A model generated the notes under the pieces. That model made no database searches and was not told the origin of the DNA. It saw only the letters and a program-made list of their open reading frames with translations. Below are positions 2,437 to 15,054 of a DNA stretch of 61,652 nucleotides, piece after piece. A program made the position numbers and the translations under genes. This DNA is from a virus. The stretch is taken from IMG/VR virus record IMGVR_UViG_3300025011_000043, positions 1-61,652 of that record; one strand, written 5' to 3'. The first letter of the stretch is position 1, and every line of letters begins with the position of its first letter.

Positions 2437-3689
2437 TGGGGATATTTAAAAAACTAATAGGGCAGAGAAGCGGGGCAAGCATTTCTAATCCAAGTAAGTG
2501 GCTTATGGATTTATTTGGCGGTAGCAGTGAGTCAAAGGCTGGCGCAATCGTAAACGAAAAGACAGCTATGTACTACTCTACAGTCTTTGCCTGTGTTCGA
2601 ATTATATCTGAAACAATAGCATCCTTACCGCTACATCTATATCGAGGGTTACCTGATGAGGGCAAAGAAAAAGCAGTGTCCCACCCACTATACTCTGTGT
2701 TACACGACATTGGAAATCCTGAGATGCCAAGCTTTACCGTTCGGGAAACCATACAGGCGCATATAAGTACATGGGGTAATGGCTGTGCTGAAATAGAATT
2801 CAATAACGGCGGATACCCAATAGCACTTTGGCCTATGCGACCAGATCGCTTACAGATTGAGAGAGAAAAAATGCTTGGCGACGTCGGGGATCGTAGAAGC
2901 GGTCTTCTTGTTTACCGCTATACTTTTGGTACAGGGGAGCAGGTTGTTTTGCCTGCAAGCAACGTACTCCATATTCCTGGACTTGGTTTCGATGGGATCA
3001 AAGGTTACTCCCCAATCAGCATGGCAAGGGAGGCAATTGGTTTAGGGTTAGCTACTGAGGAATTCGGGGCTAGATTTTTTGGTAATGGAACTCACCCAGG
3101 CGTTATAGTTGAGCATCCAGGAGAGTTATCTGACAATGCTTTTAATCATCTTAAGTCCCAGTTAACGCAAAAACATGCCGGTCTTGGTAAAAGCCATAGG
3201 TTGATGTTGCTTGACGAAGGTATGAAACTCCAGTCTTTAGGCATCCCACCTGAAGACGCACAGTTTTTAGAGACAAGGAAATTCCAAAAATCTGAAATAG
3301 CCGGTATCTACCGAGTGCCGCCCCATATGATTGGTGACCTGGAAAAAGCAACTTTTTCCAATATAGAGCAACAATCCCTTGAATTTGTACGGGACACTAT
3401 ACGCCCCTGGTGTGTACGGTGGGAACAGTATATGTTTATGAAGTTGTTGACACCTGCCGAGCGCAAAAAATATTTTATTGAGCATCTATTAGACGGTCTT
3501 TTGCGTGGTGATATAACCAGTAGATATAATGCCTATGCGGTTGGCAGACAATGGGGTTGGCTTTCAGCGGATGATATTAGGGCTTTGGAAAACATGAACC
3601 CTTTGCCAGACGGTCAGGGGAAAAAGTATCTTACCCCGTTAAATATGGCTTCGGCAGACCAGACAGGTCATGGCACCACAAAACAATAA
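2433..3689 (+). CDS. Portal protein (HK97 family)
   Basis: Dodecameric DNA gate of the head, 418 residues, typical for HK97-type portals. Family signatures visible are the N-terminal YYSTVFACVRIISETIASLPLHLY (read as two adjoining pieces, about residues 48-70), VLHIPGLGFDGIKGYSP (about 173-190) and the C-terminal IAGIYRVPPHMIGDLEKATFSNIE region. Ribosome site AGGCAGGTGG precedes the ATG. It follows the terminase and precedes the protease in the standard order. Confidence 0.95.
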   Translation: MMGIFKKLIGQRSGASISNPSKWLMDLFGGSSESKAGAIVNEKTAMYYSTVFACVRIISETIASLPLHLYRGLPDEGKEKAVSHPLYSVLHDIGNPEMPSFTVRETIQAHISTWGNGCAEIEFNNGGYPIALWPMRPDRLQIEREKMLGDVGDRRSGLLVYRYTFGTGEQVVLPASNVLHIPGLGFDGIKGYSPISMAREAIGLGLATEEFGARFFGNGTHPGVIVEHPGELSDNAFNHLKSQLTQKHAGLGKSHRLMLLDEGMKLQSLGIPPEDAQFLETRKFQKSEIAGIYRVPPHMIGDLEKATFSNIEQQSLEFVRDTIRPWCVRWEQYMFMKLLTPAERKKYFIEHLLDGLLRGDITSRYNAYAVGRQWGWLSADDIRALENMNPLPDGQGKKYLTPLNMASADQTGHGTTKQ

Positions 3690-3713
3690 CTTGGATATGG
3701 AGGTGAAACTGAA

Positions 3714-4439
3714 TTGAGTAAAAACAAACCGCCGGTACTCTACAGAGAAATGACCTTTCAAAGGGACGCTATTGACGAATCATCACGTATAGCCACTTTA
3801 AGTTTTTCGAGTGAGGCTCCTGTAATACGCCAGTCATGGTTTATGGGCGCATGGACTGAAATTCTTAGGCATGAAACACAGGCTATTGATATGATGAGGC
3901 TTAGGGATATGGGTGTACTCTTGTATATGCACAGTTCCTATTCTCCAATTGGGAGTATTATGGAGCCGTATCTTGATGAAAGCCAGCGTAAATGTATGGC
4001 AAAAGCCCGTTTTGACACAGATCCGCAAAGCGACGCAGTGTTCCAGAAGGTCCTGAGTGGTACTTTGCGCGGCGTTTCAGTAGGATACCGGGTGCTTGAA
4101 GAAGATTGGGAGGTAGTAAAAGACGGCAAGAAGTCTTCTTGTGGGCGTTTTACTGGTCCGTGCGAGATAGCAAACCGATGGACGCCCTACGAGGTAAGTA
4201 TTGTTTCTCTACCTGCTGATGTTACTGTGGGTGTGGGCCGTTCAAATGAAACAGGTTTTGAAATGTCTGAATATATGTTTGGCCGTATGGCTGATGTTAT
4301 AACTGAAAGGATTATGAAAAATATTCCTTTTGAGATACCTAAAAAACCGGAAAAAGAGGATGAACGCTCTGAGGAATCAGGAAAATTACAAATAATGCGG
4401 CGAAAACTTGATTTAATTTCCCGTATAGACACCATGTAG
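3714..4439 (+). CDS. Prohead maturation protease (HK97 family)
   Basis: Serine protease that trims the capsid protein during head maturation, 241 residues. Hallmarks are a His in GVLLYMHSSYSPIGS (about residue 74), the Ser-containing SGTLRGVSVGY (about 117-127) and PYEVSIVSLPAD (about 160). The TTG start follows GGAGGTGAAACTGAA. The residues past about 185 are a charged, helical extension that may act in scaffolding. It is followed by the capsid gene after an intrinsic terminator that overlaps the end of this gene. Confidence 0.9.
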   Translation: MSKNKPPVLYREMTFQRDAIDESSRIATLSFSSEAPVIRQSWFMGAWTEILRHETQAIDMMRLRDMGVLLYMHSSYSPIGSIMEPYLDESQRKCMAKARFDTDPQSDAVFQKVLSGTLRGVSVGYRVLEEDWEVVKDGKKSSCGRFTGPCEIANRWTPYEVSIVSLPADVTVGVGRSNETGFEMSEYMFGRMADVITERIMKNIPFEIPKKPEKEDERSEESGKLQIMRRKLDLISRIDTM

Positions 4440-4452
4440 ATGGTGTTTTTTA
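4429..4452 (+). terminator. Intrinsic terminator/attenuator before capsid gene
   Basis: ACACCA, a 6-base loop, TGGTGT, then a run of T. It spans the protease stop codon and would reduce read-through or process the mRNA ahead of the capsid gene. Confidence 0.6.
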
Positions 4453-4498
4453 TATTGAAACCCGTAAATTAGCCCAAAAATAAGTAGGAGGATGAAAA

Positions 4499-5758
4499 AT
4501 GCCATTAAGAGAAAAGAAACAAGCCCGTTTCGCCCTTGTTGGCGAGGCAAGAGTTATGCTTGATACTGCTGAAAAAGAAAAACGTGACCTTACAGCAGAA
4601 GAGAATGAGCAGTACGAAAGAATTATGGCCGATGTTGACCGCATAGGAACCGAAATTCAAGCCGAAGAACGCAAGCAGGAACGTCGTGCCAAAGTGGATG
4701 GCCTTACCCGCGAATTAGAAGGAAGCCAAGGACGTTTTGTGGGCGGGGAAAATCCGCAAGGACAAAGCAATGATGAGCAGCGAAATGCCAGGCCACGCGA
4801 TACAGAAGAATACAAAGCAGCTTTTCGCGAGTATCTTATTGGTGGCAGAGATGCGCTAACACAAAACCAGATGCGATCACTGCAGGCAGACAGCGATACT
4901 AAGGGCGGATATACCGTAGCTCCTATTCAGTTTGTCATGGAGCTTCTAAAAGATGTTGACGATGCCTTGGTAATTCGTCAGTTAGCTAGGACATTTACTC
5001 TAGATAAAGCTGAAAGCCTTGGTGTTCCAACTCGTGAAAGTCGCTATGATGACTTTGATTGGACAGGTGAAGTTAATACCGTTGAAGAGGACGACGGCAT
5101 GACTTTTGGAAAGCGCGAACTCAGGCCGCATCCGCTCAGCAAACTGATTAAAATATCTTCAAAACTCATGCGCCAGTCAATGCTTGATCCGGAAGGACTT
5201 GTTCGTCAGGAAATTTCCTATATTCTAGGCGGTACACAGGAGAAGGCATTTATGACCGGGCCAGGTGCAGGAAGGCCGCTGGGATTTTTCACTGCAAGCG
5301 ACGATGGCATCCCGACATCGCGAGACATAAGCACCGGCAACACTGCAACTGATGTAAAAGGAGATGGCTTAATAGAGGCTAAATACGCTCTTAAATCTCA
5401 GTACGTGGCGAATGCCAGATGGTTATTTCATCGCGATACCATGAAACGTATCCGTAAATTAAAAGACGGTAATGGAAATTATATTTGGATGGCCGGCCTA
5501 ACTAATGGACAACCTGATACAATTCTTGAGGTGCCCTACATCATGTCAGAATTTGCACCAAACACCTTTACTACCGGTCAGTACGTGGGAATTATCGGCG
5601 ACTTCCGGTTCTACTGGATTGTTGACGCATTGAATATGGAAATCCAGCGGTTGATTGAACTATTCAGTCTGAACAACAAGATCGGCTTTGTTATTAGGGC
5701 TGAAACAGATGCAATGCCGGTGAGAGCTGAAGCATTCGCCAGGGTGAAGCTGGGTTAA
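4499..5758 (+). CDS. Major capsid protein (HK97 fold)
   Basis: Main shell protein, 419 residues. Residues 1-110 are a highly charged helical delta/scaffold domain (LTAEENEQYERIMADVDRI) expected to be removed by the upstream protease. The body carries family motifs such as KGGYTVAPIQFV (about 130), PHPLSKLIKISSKLMRQS (about 205-222), QEKAFMTGPGAGRPLGF (about 250) and a C-terminal FVIRAETDAMPVRAEAFARVKLG region. A strong AGGAGG precedes the ATG. Confidence 0.96.
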   Translation: MPLREKKQARFALVGEARVMLDTAEKEKRDLTAEENEQYERIMADVDRIGTEIQAEERKQERRAKVDGLTRELEGSQGRFVGGENPQGQSNDEQRNARPRDTEEYKAAFREYLIGGRDALTQNQMRSLQADSDTKGGYTVAPIQFVMELLKDVDDALVIRQLARTFTLDKAESLGVPTRESRYDDFDWTGEVNTVEEDDGMTFGKRELRPHPLSKLIKISSKLMRQSMLDPEGLVRQEISYILGGTQEKAFMTGPGAGRPLGFFTASDDGIPTSRDISTGNTATDVKGDGLIEAKYALKSQYVANARWLFHRDTMKRIRKLKDGNGNYIWMAGLTNGQPDTILEVPYIMSEFAPNTFTTGQYVGIIGDFRFYWIVDALNMEIQRLIELFSLNNKIGFVIRAETDAMPVRAEAFARVKLG

Positions 5759-13078: not shown

Positions 13079-13288
13079 TTAAACCCCCTTTATATGCTCT
13101 AATAAGTCTCCTGGCTGACAGTTCAGAGCAGTACATAAACGATCTATTACGGAAACATCAACGCGAGTAATAGTTCCTTTGTACATAGCATACAAAGTAT
13201 TCTTATTTATTCCGCTTAGTTCCTGTAGTTCTGGTACTTTCATTCTATTATTTTCAAACATTAGTTTATCTAATTTAAATTTAATCAT
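13079..13288 (-). CDS. XRE-family transcriptional regulator (HTH)
   Basis: 69 residues starting MIKFKLDKLM; ATG 13288 sits six bases after GGAGGG (ATG 13294 and 13321 are too close to, or inside, the control elements). The pattern MKVPELQELSGINKNTLYAMYKGTITRVDVSVIDRLCTALNCQPGDLLEH is a complete Cro/C1-type HTH. Divergent to the gene at 13437 over a 148-base control region, so it probably represses one or both promoters there. Confidence 0.85.
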   Translation of the reverse strand: MIKFKLDKLMFENNRMKVPELQELSGINKNTLYAMYKGTITRVDVSVIDRLCTALNCQPGDLLEHIKGV

Positions 13289-13309
13289 ATCCATCCCTCC
13301 ATGATAGAT

Positions 13310-13338
13310 ATTATACAACATAGTATGCTGAAATTCAA
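13310..13338 (-). promoter_or_regulatory. Leftward sigma-A promoter for the HTH/zinc-ribbon pair
   Basis: On the minus strand: TTGAAT (13338-13333), 17 bases, TATAAT (13315-13310), then GGAGGG before the HTH start. Confidence 0.75.
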
Positions 13339-13348
13339 TTGTATAGAA

Positions 13349-13413
13349 TATTTTTTACAATAAACTATTGACACTAAACAATATATAATGTACAATGAAG
13401 TAAGTAAAAAATA
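13349..13413. promoter_or_regulatory. Inverted-repeat operator pair around the rightward promoter
   Basis: TATTTTTTAC at 13349-13358 and its exact reverse complement GTAAAAAATA at 13404-13413 bracket the rightward promoter. They are candidate binding sites for the divergent HTH protein. Confidence 0.5.
13368..13396 (+). promoter_or_regulatory. Rightward sigma-A promoter
   Basis: TTGACA (13368-13373), 17 bases, TACAAT (13391-13396), upstream of the TTG-started gene at 13437. Confidence 0.7.
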
Positions 13414-13436
13414 CATTGTTTGCTGGAGGTGTTAAA

Positions 13437-13706
13437 TTGAATTTTAAGGATGCGTTCAATAAGTTTATGCTAGAACGGGCGGTTGCTGTTGCTTGTGGTG
13501 AAGCAGAAATTGACGCTAGTTATGTTAAAAAGCACAATGCACTGGTAGAATCTTTGCAGAAAATAGATACCGATATTGCCGAAGTTATTGAGGAAGCATT
13601 TGTCTTTTGTTGCGGCGTATGTGCTGAATATGGCTATAAGCTTGGCATGAAGGATGGAGCAGCCTTATTGGAAGAAATACTGCCTTCGGTCAGATTGGGG
13701 GCGTAG
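13437..13706 (+). CDS. Hypothetical helical protein
   Basis: 89 residues; TTG 13437 follows GGAGGTG. Mostly helical (KDAFNKFMLERAVAVACGEAEIDASYVKKHNALVESLQKIDTDIAEVIEEAF) with Cys-rich FCCGVCAEYGYKLGMKDGAALL. No firm family. Short helical proteins with this 'YKLGMKDGAxLL' ending occur in Firmicutes prophages. First gene of a rightward cassette under its own regulated promoter. Confidence 0.6.
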   Translation: MNFKDAFNKFMLERAVAVACGEAEIDASYVKKHNALVESLQKIDTDIAEVIEEAFVFCCGVCAEYGYKLGMKDGAALLEEILPSVRLGA

Positions 13707-13707
13707 T

Positions 13708-13839
13708 ATGAAAATAATCCAATTAAGTGGTAATCTATCGGAGCTTATTGAGTATGCAGTAATATCTGGGTGCTTAATGATTAGTTCAGCGCTTACAGAG
13801 CAGGAGCAACAGGAAACCATTCAAAAAATAGCAGGTTAA
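13708..13839 (+). CDS. Hypothetical 43-residue protein
   Basis: ATG 13708, one base after the previous stop (TAGTATG), so translationally coupled. MKIIQLSGNLSELIEYAVISGCLMISSALTEQEQQ... is amphipathic without obvious domains. Confidence 0.45.
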   Translation: MKIIQLSGNLSELIEYAVISGCLMISSALTEQEQQETIQKIAG

Positions 13840-13857
13840 TACCGGGAGGGGTATGGT

Positions 13858-14484
13858 ATGGGTAAGAATATTTTAACAGCAACTATCGAGATTAAGGGAA
13901 TAAGACCGTTGTTATGGCATGTGTTCGGGCCGGATTCTTTGCCGCTTGAAAAACAAGAAAAAACCGGCGTTGCCGGGCATAATCCCGATGAATGGAAGAA
14001 AACTTTTACAGCAACCAAAGAAGGTCAGCTTTATTTGCCCGGTTCTTATTTTTTCGGAACCTACATAGCAGGTGCCAAGTTTACTAAGAAGGGTAAAGGC
14101 TCAATTCAGAGCATGGTATCGGCAACATTACAGGTGTTGGATGATAAGGTTTTAGTTAATCGCCGTTTACCGAGTGACATTTACGAAGTACCGCAAAAGT
14201 ATTATAATGCTGACGATGAACTTGTTTATATTGATGTACGGTCGGTAAGAAACCCTAGCACCAAGGCAAGGAATATTCGTTATCGTATTGCCACTTGCCC
14301 GGGTTGGGAGTGTAAATTTTCAGTGATTTTCGATAAAACGGTTGTAAGTAGGGCTGAAATGCAGGCCGCTATCATAGATGCCGGAAAACTTTGCGGCATA
14401 GGTGATGGTCGCTCAGTTGGGTATGGTAGATTTGAAGTAGTATCATTTGAGGTAACAGAAGATGCCGAAAAAGCGACCTCCTAA
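13858..14484 (+). CDS. RAMP-like phage protein with glycine-rich loop
   Basis: 208 residues from ATG behind GGGAGGGG. It begins with a beta strand and PLLWH motif (TIEIKGIRPLLWHVFG) and ends with a glycine-rich loop GKLCGIGDGRSVGYGRFEV (about 178-196). A central YIDVRSVRNPSTKARNIRYRI has conserved-looking Arg residues. This architecture belongs to a family seen in phages and mobile DNA that looks like the RAMP ferredoxin-like fold of CRISPR Cas5/Cas7 proteins. The fold link is inference from motif shape. No CRISPR array is present. Its 3' end overlaps an HNH gene. Confidence 0.55.
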   Translation: MGKNILTATIEIKGIRPLLWHVFGPDSLPLEKQEKTGVAGHNPDEWKKTFTATKEGQLYLPGSYFFGTYIAGAKFTKKGKGSIQSMVSATLQVLDDKVLVNRRLPSDIYEVPQKYYNADDELVYIDVRSVRNPSTKARNIRYRIATCPGWECKFSVIFDKTVVSRAEMQAAIIDAGKLCGIGDGRSVGYGRFEVVSFEVTEDAEKATS

Positions 14485-14752
14485 AGAGGTATGGGCAGAA
14501 CTAAGAAAAATAGTTTGGGAGCGTGACGGTGGAAAGTGTGTTCACTGTCACATCCCGGTTAAAATAAATGAGTGTAATATTGATCACATTAAAAGCGGAA
14601 AATTAGCAACTAATCAGTTAAAAAATCTAAGGACTTTATGCCGTAGGTGTCACGTTTTGAGGAGTGATAGTAGGCATAGAGGTATGATTAGTAAGGCTTT
14701 GAAGGATGGTATCATTCCTCCAAACTGGCGCGAGTTAGTTTGGGATGGTTGA
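14462..14752 (+). CDS. HNH endonuclease
   Basis: 96 residues; ATG 14462 overlaps the preceding gene by 23 bases. The HNH core is WERDGGKCVHCHIPV, then ECNIDHIKSGKLATNQLKNLRTLCRRCHVLRSD: two CxxC zinc pairs, the DH pair and the N...H of the motif. It may be a homing or nicking nuclease. Free-standing HNH genes within tail operons are often mobile. The non-coding array with a ribozyme follows directly. Confidence 0.88.
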   Translation: MPKKRPPKEVWAELRKIVWERDGGKCVHCHIPVKINECNIDHIKSGKLATNQLKNLRTLCRRCHVLRSDSRHRGMISKALKDGIIPPNWRELVWDG

Positions 14753-14760
14753 TATATAAG

Positions 14761-14845
14761 CGGTGAGGACTGGCGGGGATTGGAACGGTGAGGTGTGGAT
14801 AGGCGAGGCAAGGATAGGAACGGTGAGGTGTGGCAAGGTAAGGGA
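14761..14845 (+). repeat. Five-base-periodic NGGNN array, left block
   Basis: 17 consecutive pentamers fit NGGNN without interruption (cggtg, aggac, tggcg, gggat ...). A 17-base stretch GGAACGGTGAGGTGTGG occurs twice (14782 and 14817). Almost no C and no plausible ribosome site. Period 5 does not suit coding. Confidence 0.9.
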
Positions 14846-14902
14846 TCGAAACGGTGCTTTGCACCGTCTGTCGGGATTCGTCAACCCGACACTGATGAGA
14901 TT
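14844..14902 (+). ncRNA. Type II hammerhead ribozyme (predicted)
   Basis: All core elements are in order for a stem-II-open hammerhead. Stem II 5' strand GATC (14844-14847), GAA plus A15.1 (14848-14851), stem III ACGGTGC-TTT-GCACCGT (14851-14867), cleavage base C 14868 after GT, stem I TGTCGGG-9-base loop-CCCGACA (14869-14891), CTGATGA (14892-14898), stem II 3' strand GATT (14899-14902; three Watson-Crick pairs and one G-U). Stem II is short. Self-cleavage would fall between 14868 and 14869. Confidence 0.85.
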
Positions 14903-14915
14903 GACGATAACAGCT

Positions 14916-15020
14916 CGGTGTGGCGGGGATCGGTCTGGTAAGTCATGGCGAGGATTGGACAGGACTGGCGAGGTACGGCGGGGCGAGGTATGTTGTGGTG
15001 CGGTTTAATAAGGTATGGTA
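14916..15020 (+). repeat. Five-base-periodic NGGNN array, right block
   Basis: 18 of 21 successive pentamers fit NGGNN (exceptions agtca, tgttg, taata). The phase is the same as in the left block because the 70 bases between them are a multiple of five. The 14752-15077 interval holds no supported gene. Confidence 0.85.
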
Positions 15021-15054
15021 AAAATAAACACCTATTAACTTAGGTGTTTATTTT
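15021..15054. terminator. Bidirectional terminator before the tape measure gene
   Basis: A perfect 14-bp stem (AAAATAAACACCTA/TAGGTGTTTATTTT) with a 6-base loop and A/T tracts on both sides. It would end the RNA that carries the ribozyme and array. Confidence 0.8.

What the first reader, a model, noticed from the sequence alone, without database searches (positions are those of the whole stretch)
14761..15020. Predicted type II hammerhead ribozyme embedded in a five-base-periodic array
Seen: all invariant core bases (CTGATGA, GAA, A15.1-U16.1, cleavage GTC), perfect stems I and III (7 bp each) and a short stem II, in the order for a stem-II-open molecule. It sits between two NGGNN arrays (17 of 17 and 18 of 21 pentamers) whose phase is kept across the 70-base ribozyme segment, and a terminator follows. 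Known: type II hammerheads occur in bacteria and prophages. Inference: the arrays and ribozyme make one non-coding RNA whose processing matters to the phage or to the neighbouring HNH gene.
Basis: partly seen in the sequence, partly recalled or inferred. Interest (0 to 1): 0.92.

Follow-up and report, generated by a model that had tools for sequence, protein, structure and literature searches.

The report
Self-cutting phage guide-RNA array (VIPR)
A bacterial virus carries an RNA-guided targeting cassette (a Vipr protein, an HNH nuclease and two five-base-repeat guide RNAs) in which a small self-cutting ribozyme sits between the two guides, apparently to cut them apart; systems of this kind were first described in a 2026 preprint.

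Summary
Two five-base-periodic arrays (17 of 17 and 18 of 21 GG-H-NN pentamers) flank a complete type II hammerhead with cleavage predicted at 14868|14869. Rfam Hammerhead_II scores 36.3 bits (cut-off 37). Sixteen hammerheads from eight independent array loci keep the core and show strong covariation in stems and pseudoknot. The gene at 13858-14484 is a homologue of SUSP1 Vipr (PDB 36pp, phmmer 1.7e-6) with a confident CRISPR RAMP (Csm-like) fold. The HNH gene is its conserved partner in all 16 members of its clade, and 74 of 79 Vipr-like viral loci carry such arrays. Best mechanism: the arrays are vrRNA guides, and the hammerhead separates them without a host nuclease. In relatives a hammerhead also follows the HNH stop codon, or seven alternate with guide arrays. 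The preprint already reports hammerhead-interspersed arrays, so this is a new member of a known kind. No target was found for either guide; cleavage and HNH function are untested.

The parts
13079..13321 (-). Cro/C1-type regulator (HTH_26), divergent from the cassette; regulators of this kind also lie divergently upstream of vipr in L010, L268 and L269
   Evidence: Pfam HTH_26 5e-20; position
13858..14484 (+). vipr: RAMP protein, 208 aa, with the conserved G-loop AGKLCGIGDGRSVGYGRFEV
   Evidence: phmmer to PDB 36pp SUSP1 Vipr 1.7e-6; AF2 pLDDT 89.8, pTM 0.84; Foldseek to Csm subunits about 3e-10
14462..14752 (+). HNH protein, 96 aa, overlapping the end of vipr; presumed vipr-associated protein (vap)
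   Evidence: Pfam HNH 1.1e-6; homologue next to vipr in all 15 other clade members
14762..14846 (+). Array 1: 17 of 17 GG-N-NN pentamers, presumed guide part of vrRNA 1
14844..14909 (+). Type II hammerhead; stem II strands 14844-14847 and 14899-14902, predicted cleavage 14868|14869
   Evidence: Rfam RF02276 36.3 bits; covariation across 16 hammerheads
14851..14867 (+). Stem III hairpin (14851-14857 with 14861-14867), left as the 3' end of vrRNA 1 after cleavage
   Evidence: fate inferred
14869..14891 (+). Stem I hairpin (14869-14875 with 14885-14891), left as the 5' end of vrRNA 2 after cleavage
   Evidence: fate inferred
14892..14898 (+). Catalytic core CUGAUGA
14878..14907 (+). Pseudoknot: loop I 14878-14884 pairs with 14901-14907 (7 bp; its last two pairs compete with the outer stem II pairs)
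   Evidence: conserved columns
14917..15021 (+). Array 2: 18 of 21 GG-H-NN pentamers, presumed guide part of vrRNA 2
15022..15053 (+). 13-bp hairpin followed by a T-rich stretch: likely terminator and 3' end of vrRNA 2
   Evidence: z -5.4; not listed by the simple terminator scan

Best explanation
A phage-borne VIPR system of an HNH-bearing clade, with a hammerhead-interspersed guide array. Vipr (RAMP fold) presumably assembles along guide RNAs made of GG-H-NN pentamers whose NN pairs are read against DNA with one base skipped between them, as shown for SUSP1. The type II hammerhead between the arrays cleaves the transcript in cis at 14868|14869, giving vrRNA 1 (array 1 plus the stem III hairpin, 2',3'-cyclic phosphate end) and vrRNA 2 (5'-OH, stem I hairpin, core, array 2, terminator hairpin). 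The HNH protein probably acts on DNA bound by the Vipr-guide complex, most likely that of a competing phage. Shown here by computation: anatomy, Vipr homology and fold, clade-wide linkage of HNH and arrays, hammerhead covariation. Inferred: cleavage in the cell, guide use, the skip code in this clade, HNH action, and the target.
For: Vipr homology and RAMP fold. Same-strand arrays in 74 of 79 Vipr-like viral loci. HNH next to vipr in all 16 members of one clade with support 1.0. Sixteen hammerheads in eight array loci with strong covariation; Rfam finds seven in the L267 array at 45-55 bits and none in 14 control genomes. Placement in relatives: right after the HNH stop and between arrays in L261, alternating with arrays in L267, bracketing one array in L269. 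The preprint reports hammerhead-interspersed arrays and says such RNAs were seen by sRNA-seq.
Against: No DNA target was found for either guide or for two relatives' guides. Array lengths (17 and 21 units) exceed the 9-16 given for SUSP1-type vrRNAs, three units of array 2 are broken, and A stands at the Y position in 10 of 38 units. No hammerhead precedes array 1, so its 5' end is unexplained. Eleven of the 16 clade members have no hammerhead detected, so it is dispensable for the system. The hammerhead scores just below the Rfam cut-off.
Confidence: 0.85

Rival explanations
1. The hammerhead mainly processes phage mRNA (separating vipr-HNH from the downstream tape-measure transcript or tuning its stability), and its place between arrays is incidental, as proposed for other prophage hammerheads.
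For: PMC3088659 reports hammerheads flanking genes in prophages and suggests mRNA processing. The cassette lies inside the tail module, between Phage_tail_T-like and tape-measure genes.
Against: In L267 seven hammerheads follow each other with only arrays between them, 122-146 nt apart, and in L261 one lies between two arrays: cuts there separate guides, not genes. A strong hairpin already ends the unit before the tape-measure gene.
Confidence: 0.07
2. The ribozyme is a decayed or slow hammerhead: the structure is kept as an RNA tail or Vipr handle, but little cleavage happens.
For: Score below the Rfam cut-off; stem II is short; many relatives separate arrays with other, non-hammerhead elements.
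Against: All catalytic bases, a GUC cleavage triplet and a 7-bp pseudoknot are intact; compensatory changes preserve the fold across loci; the catalytic core itself is invariant in all 16 apart from the tolerant N7 position.
Confidence: 0.05
3. The arrays are simple tandem-repeat DNA or an odd coding sequence without guide function.
For: A 17-nt stretch recurs inside array 1; an 81-aa frame spans the region; no target was found.
Against: NN varies freely while GG is fixed, and the period is 5, not 3. Arrays are linked to vipr genes across 74 of 79 viral loci. SUSP1, whose vrRNAs co-purify with Vipr (PMC13142463), has the same pattern beside the homologous gene.
Confidence: 0.03

Closest known systems
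VIPR systems (Viral Interference Programmable Repeat; PMC13142463, 2026 preprint), in particular its hammerhead-interspersed array architecture (fig. S19)
   Same: Vipr homologue with RAMP fold and G-loop, phage-borne two-gene locus, same-strand GG/NN pentamer arrays, hammerhead between arrays
   Different: Third base is H rather than strictly Y; arrays of 17 and 21 units; the partner is an HNH protein (the main text read here says nucleases for some types but does not name HNH); type not assignable because the supplement was not available
Type II hammerhead ribozymes of bacteria and prophages (Rfam RF02276; PMC3088659)
   Same: Core, three stems with open stem II, loop I to 3'-flank pseudoknot, phage context
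   Different: Sits between guide-RNA arrays rather than beside ordinary genes; scores 0.7 bits under the Rfam cut-off
Class 1 CRISPR effectors (Csm/Cas7-type RAMPs)
   Same: RAMP fold (Foldseek about 3e-10 to Csm subunits) and a backbone protein presumed to coat a guide RNA
   Different: One small RAMP gene, no CRISPR repeats; guide ends apparently made by a ribozyme instead of a Cas6-type nuclease (the latter from general knowledge); pentamer code

Membership tests
VIPR system | RAMP protein of the Vipr family with RRM core and G-loop | tested here: met
   phmmer 1.7e-6 to SUSP1 Vipr 36pp; AF2 and Foldseek; conserved G-loop
VIPR system | Adjacent noncoding array of GGY/NN pentamers or a related consensus | tested here: met
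   38 pentamers, 35 with GG; third base T 17, A 10, C 10, G 1, so GGH rather than strict GGY
VIPR system | 9-16 repeats per vrRNA (as given for the SUSP1-type arrays) | tested here: not met
   17 and 21 units; the figure describes the characterised systems, not a stated limit for all types
VIPR system | vipr-accessory gene (vap) beside vipr | tested here: met
   HNH gene beside vipr in all 16 clade members; whether it is one of vap1-6 was not determined
VIPR system | Carried mainly by phages or proviruses | tested here: met
   Viral record G000 with terminase, tail and tape-measure genes
VIPR system | DNA targets matched by NN with a one-base skip | tested here: inconclusive
   No target found in the sequences searched
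VIPR system | vrRNA expression and co-purification with Vipr | not testable with these tools
   Needs sRNA-seq and pull-down
Type II hammerhead ribozyme | Conserved core (CUGANGA, GAA, A15.1-U16.1) and NUH cleavage triplet | tested here: met
   CUGAUGA, GAAA, GUC
Type II hammerhead ribozyme | Stems I and III closed by loops, stem II open | tested here: met
   7, 4 and 7 bp for stems I, II and III; covariation
Type II hammerhead ribozyme | Loop I to 3'-flank pseudoknot (in most members) | tested here: met
   7 bp, p 0.0015; four of five conserved pseudoknot pairs show changes on both sides across loci
Type II hammerhead ribozyme | Rfam covariance-model score at or above gathering | tested here: inconclusive
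   36.3 against 37 bits here; relatives in L267 score 45-55
Type II hammerhead ribozyme | Self-cleavage | not testable with these tools
   Needs in vitro transcription

The most novel reading that the evidence does not exclude
A compact RNA-guided DNA nuclease made of one RAMP, one HNH protein and guides that mature themselves with cis-acting ribozymes, each mature guide keeping half a hammerhead as an end handle recognised by Vipr or HNH, so that no host or Cas6-type nuclease is needed. The preprint main text read here does not describe an HNH partner or a handle role for the ribozyme halves; its supplement was not available.
Probability: 0.35. Interest if true: 0.85.

Novelty: new member of a known kind. 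Interest (0 to 1): 0.6.

Why it matters
It gives a concrete, testable job to phage type II hammerheads, whose biological role was unclear when they were described: releasing individual guide RNAs from an array. It documents an HNH-partnered Vipr clade that spans phage contigs and bacterial genome contigs (Paenibacillus, Marinithermofilum, Pelotomaculum), with hammerheads scattered within the clade. If the HNH protein cuts guided targets, this would be a very small programmable nuclease whose guides need no processing enzyme.

Tried and rejected
Default Rfam scan of the window: no hit, because the hammerhead lies just under the cut-off. Vipr single-sequence search of genome contigs found nothing; the alignment search found seven. 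First AF2 run with 9 sequences gave pLDDT 40 and was discarded; the 63-sequence run is used. CTGATGAG-plus-array hits in L015, L017, L027 and L030 are chance cores inside long arrays without stems. L218 and L259 (detector score 11) are not at arrays and were rejected. Target hunting failed: exact 8- and 9-unit patterns in viral contigs (the six 8-unit hits do not extend); all held loci at skips 0-3, with only self hits at skip 3; 113 genomes of the Pelotomaculum class for both window guides; 400 and 105 family genomes for the two Paenibacillus guides. Profile E-values to 36pp from alignments A1 and A4 are partly circular, since both contain SUSP1 Vipr; the phmmer value of the window protein alone is the one relied on. 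Single pseudoknot p-values are mostly weak (combined 0.0008 over ten loci-level cases), so the covariation count carries that argument; in alignment A3, L029 and L204 are partly misaligned and count against the structure. A hidden-ORF reading of the array (81 aa) was rejected because the period is 5, not 3.

Full report
What was checked. The two pentamer arrays and the hammerhead are at the stated coordinates. GG recurs every five bases in 17 of 17 units from 14762 and in 18 of 21 units from 14917, against an expectation of 0.01 pattern matches in shuffles. The Rfam scan with default thresholds is empty, but the E-value scan of the region gives Hammerhead_II across its full length, 36.3 bits against a cut-off of 37. 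PMC3088659 describes such a pseudoknot in a majority of type II hammerheads and shows by mutation that it matters for fast cleavage.

What the arrays are. A literature search on hammerheads in phages surfaced PMC13142463, which defines VIPR systems: a small RAMP protein, Vipr, and vrRNAs of alternating GGY/NN motifs that recognise DNA through the NN pairs with a one-base skip. It also mentions hammerhead ribozyme-interspersed arrays. The gene at 13858-14484 was tested for this. Alone, it finds PDB 36pp 'SUSP1 Vipr protein' at 1.7e-6, and tblastn finds SUSP1-like and Felix-O1-like phages. A model built on 63 relatives has pLDDT 89.8 and pTM 0.84, and its best structural matches are Csm subunits at about 3e-10 with probability 1.00, though with modest TM-scores of 0.45-0.57. 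SUSP1 itself shows GGYNN arrays flanking the homologous gene. Of 79 Vipr-like viral loci found from an alignment, 74 carry a same-strand NGGNN array in the held flank.

The HNH gene. A homologue of the 96-aa HNH protein (14462-14752) lies next to vipr in all 15 other members of one well supported clade (support 1.0), at 55-80% identity: viral contigs L010, L032-L037 and L261, and genome contigs L266-L272, including Pelotomaculum, Marinithermofilum and Paenibacillus. In L269 a type I methylase gene lies about 4 kb downstream, weakly in line with the preprint's remark that nuclease-bearing types are enriched in defence islands. Which of the preprint's seven types this is cannot be settled without its supplement. 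The same cassette sits inside the tail module in the window but at another place in the related phage contig L010, which suggests that it moves as a unit.

The hammerheads. A strict detector over 4.55 Mb of held sequence (both strands summed) scored 12 or more only for hammerheads at arrays. With L267 and L269 there are 16 in eight independent loci: window, L010, L029, L204, L232, L261 (two), L267 (seven), L269 (two). Rfam independently finds seven in L267 at 45-55 bits and one each in L010 and L269; fourteen control genomes have none. Stems I and III differ in sequence between loci while pairing is kept. Over an alignment of all 16, 87.5% of cells pair against 68.8% in shuffles and 22-42% in slid controls; 17 of 23 pairs show changes on both sides, including four of the five pseudoknot pairs. 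The seven of L267 are related to each other, so cells are not independent events. L204 and L232 carry Vipr-like genes outside the HNH clade, so hammerheads occur in more than one Vipr lineage.

How it most likely works. The positions argue for guide release. In L261 one hammerhead follows the HNH stop directly and another separates the two arrays. In L267 seven alternate with arrays, with cleavage sites 122-146 nt apart, and in L269 they bracket one array. Each cut leaves the stem III hairpin at the 3' end of the upstream guide and the stem I hairpin with the core at the 5' end of the downstream guide. In the window this predicts vrRNA 1 ending at 14868 and vrRNA 2 running from 14869 to the hairpin at about 15053. 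Array 1 starts 10 nt after the HNH stop with no hammerhead before it, so its 5' end is undefined. That Vipr coats these guides and that HNH cuts the bound DNA are inferences from the preprint and from gene linkage.

What is missing. No target was found for either window guide, nor for two Paenibacillus guides, so the skip code is untested for this clade. Given that target phages of an uncultured host may not be sequenced, this is weak evidence against guide function. Cleavage and nuclease action need the bench.

Novelty. VIPR and hammerhead-interspersed arrays are already reported, though in the library searched only in one 2026 preprint, so the locus is a new member of a known kind. What this report adds is the HNH clade and its linkage, the covariation and pseudoknot evidence, the placement after the HNH stop in relatives, and the GGH spelling of the pentamer.

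Noticed in passing
L267:6860-7700: Marinithermofilum abyssi contig: seven successive type II hammerheads alternating with pentamer arrays after vipr and HNH, cleavage sites 122-146 nt apart; a MazF/PemK-like toxin gene lies downstream.
   Followed up: yes
L092:3580-3650, L106:3355-3670, L107:3965-4280: Between arrays a different structured element recurs (GGGCTGC-GACGGCAGCACGGAGGG...CCCTGCTG), repeated with compensatory-looking changes; no Rfam match at gathering score. Possibly another processing element or vrRNA tail.
   Followed up: no
L033:4690-4870, L034:4075-4130, L266:3043-3112: HNH-clade relatives without hammerheads separate their arrays with other hairpin elements, so the hammerhead seems interchangeable with other spacers or tails.
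   Followed up: partly
L029:2210-2380: A hammerhead directly followed by one pentamer array and a strong hairpin, with no vipr gene in the held flank: possibly an orphan vrRNA.
   Followed up: no
window 14782-14798 and 14817-14833: A 17-nt stretch (GGAACGGTGAGGTGTGG) occurs twice, 35 nt apart, inside array 1.
   Followed up: no
L010:4640-6486 compared with window 13079-15053: The regulator-vipr-HNH-array cassette lies in the tail module in the window but at a different place in the related contig L010, as if it moved as a unit.
   Followed up: partly
L232:1448-2022: The Vipr-like gene upstream of the L232 hammerhead array seems split by a frameshift.
   Followed up: no
L090:1-1128 and 3024-4814; L095:4231-4525: Very long pentamer arrays (hundreds of bases) beside Vipr-like genes.
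   Followed up: no
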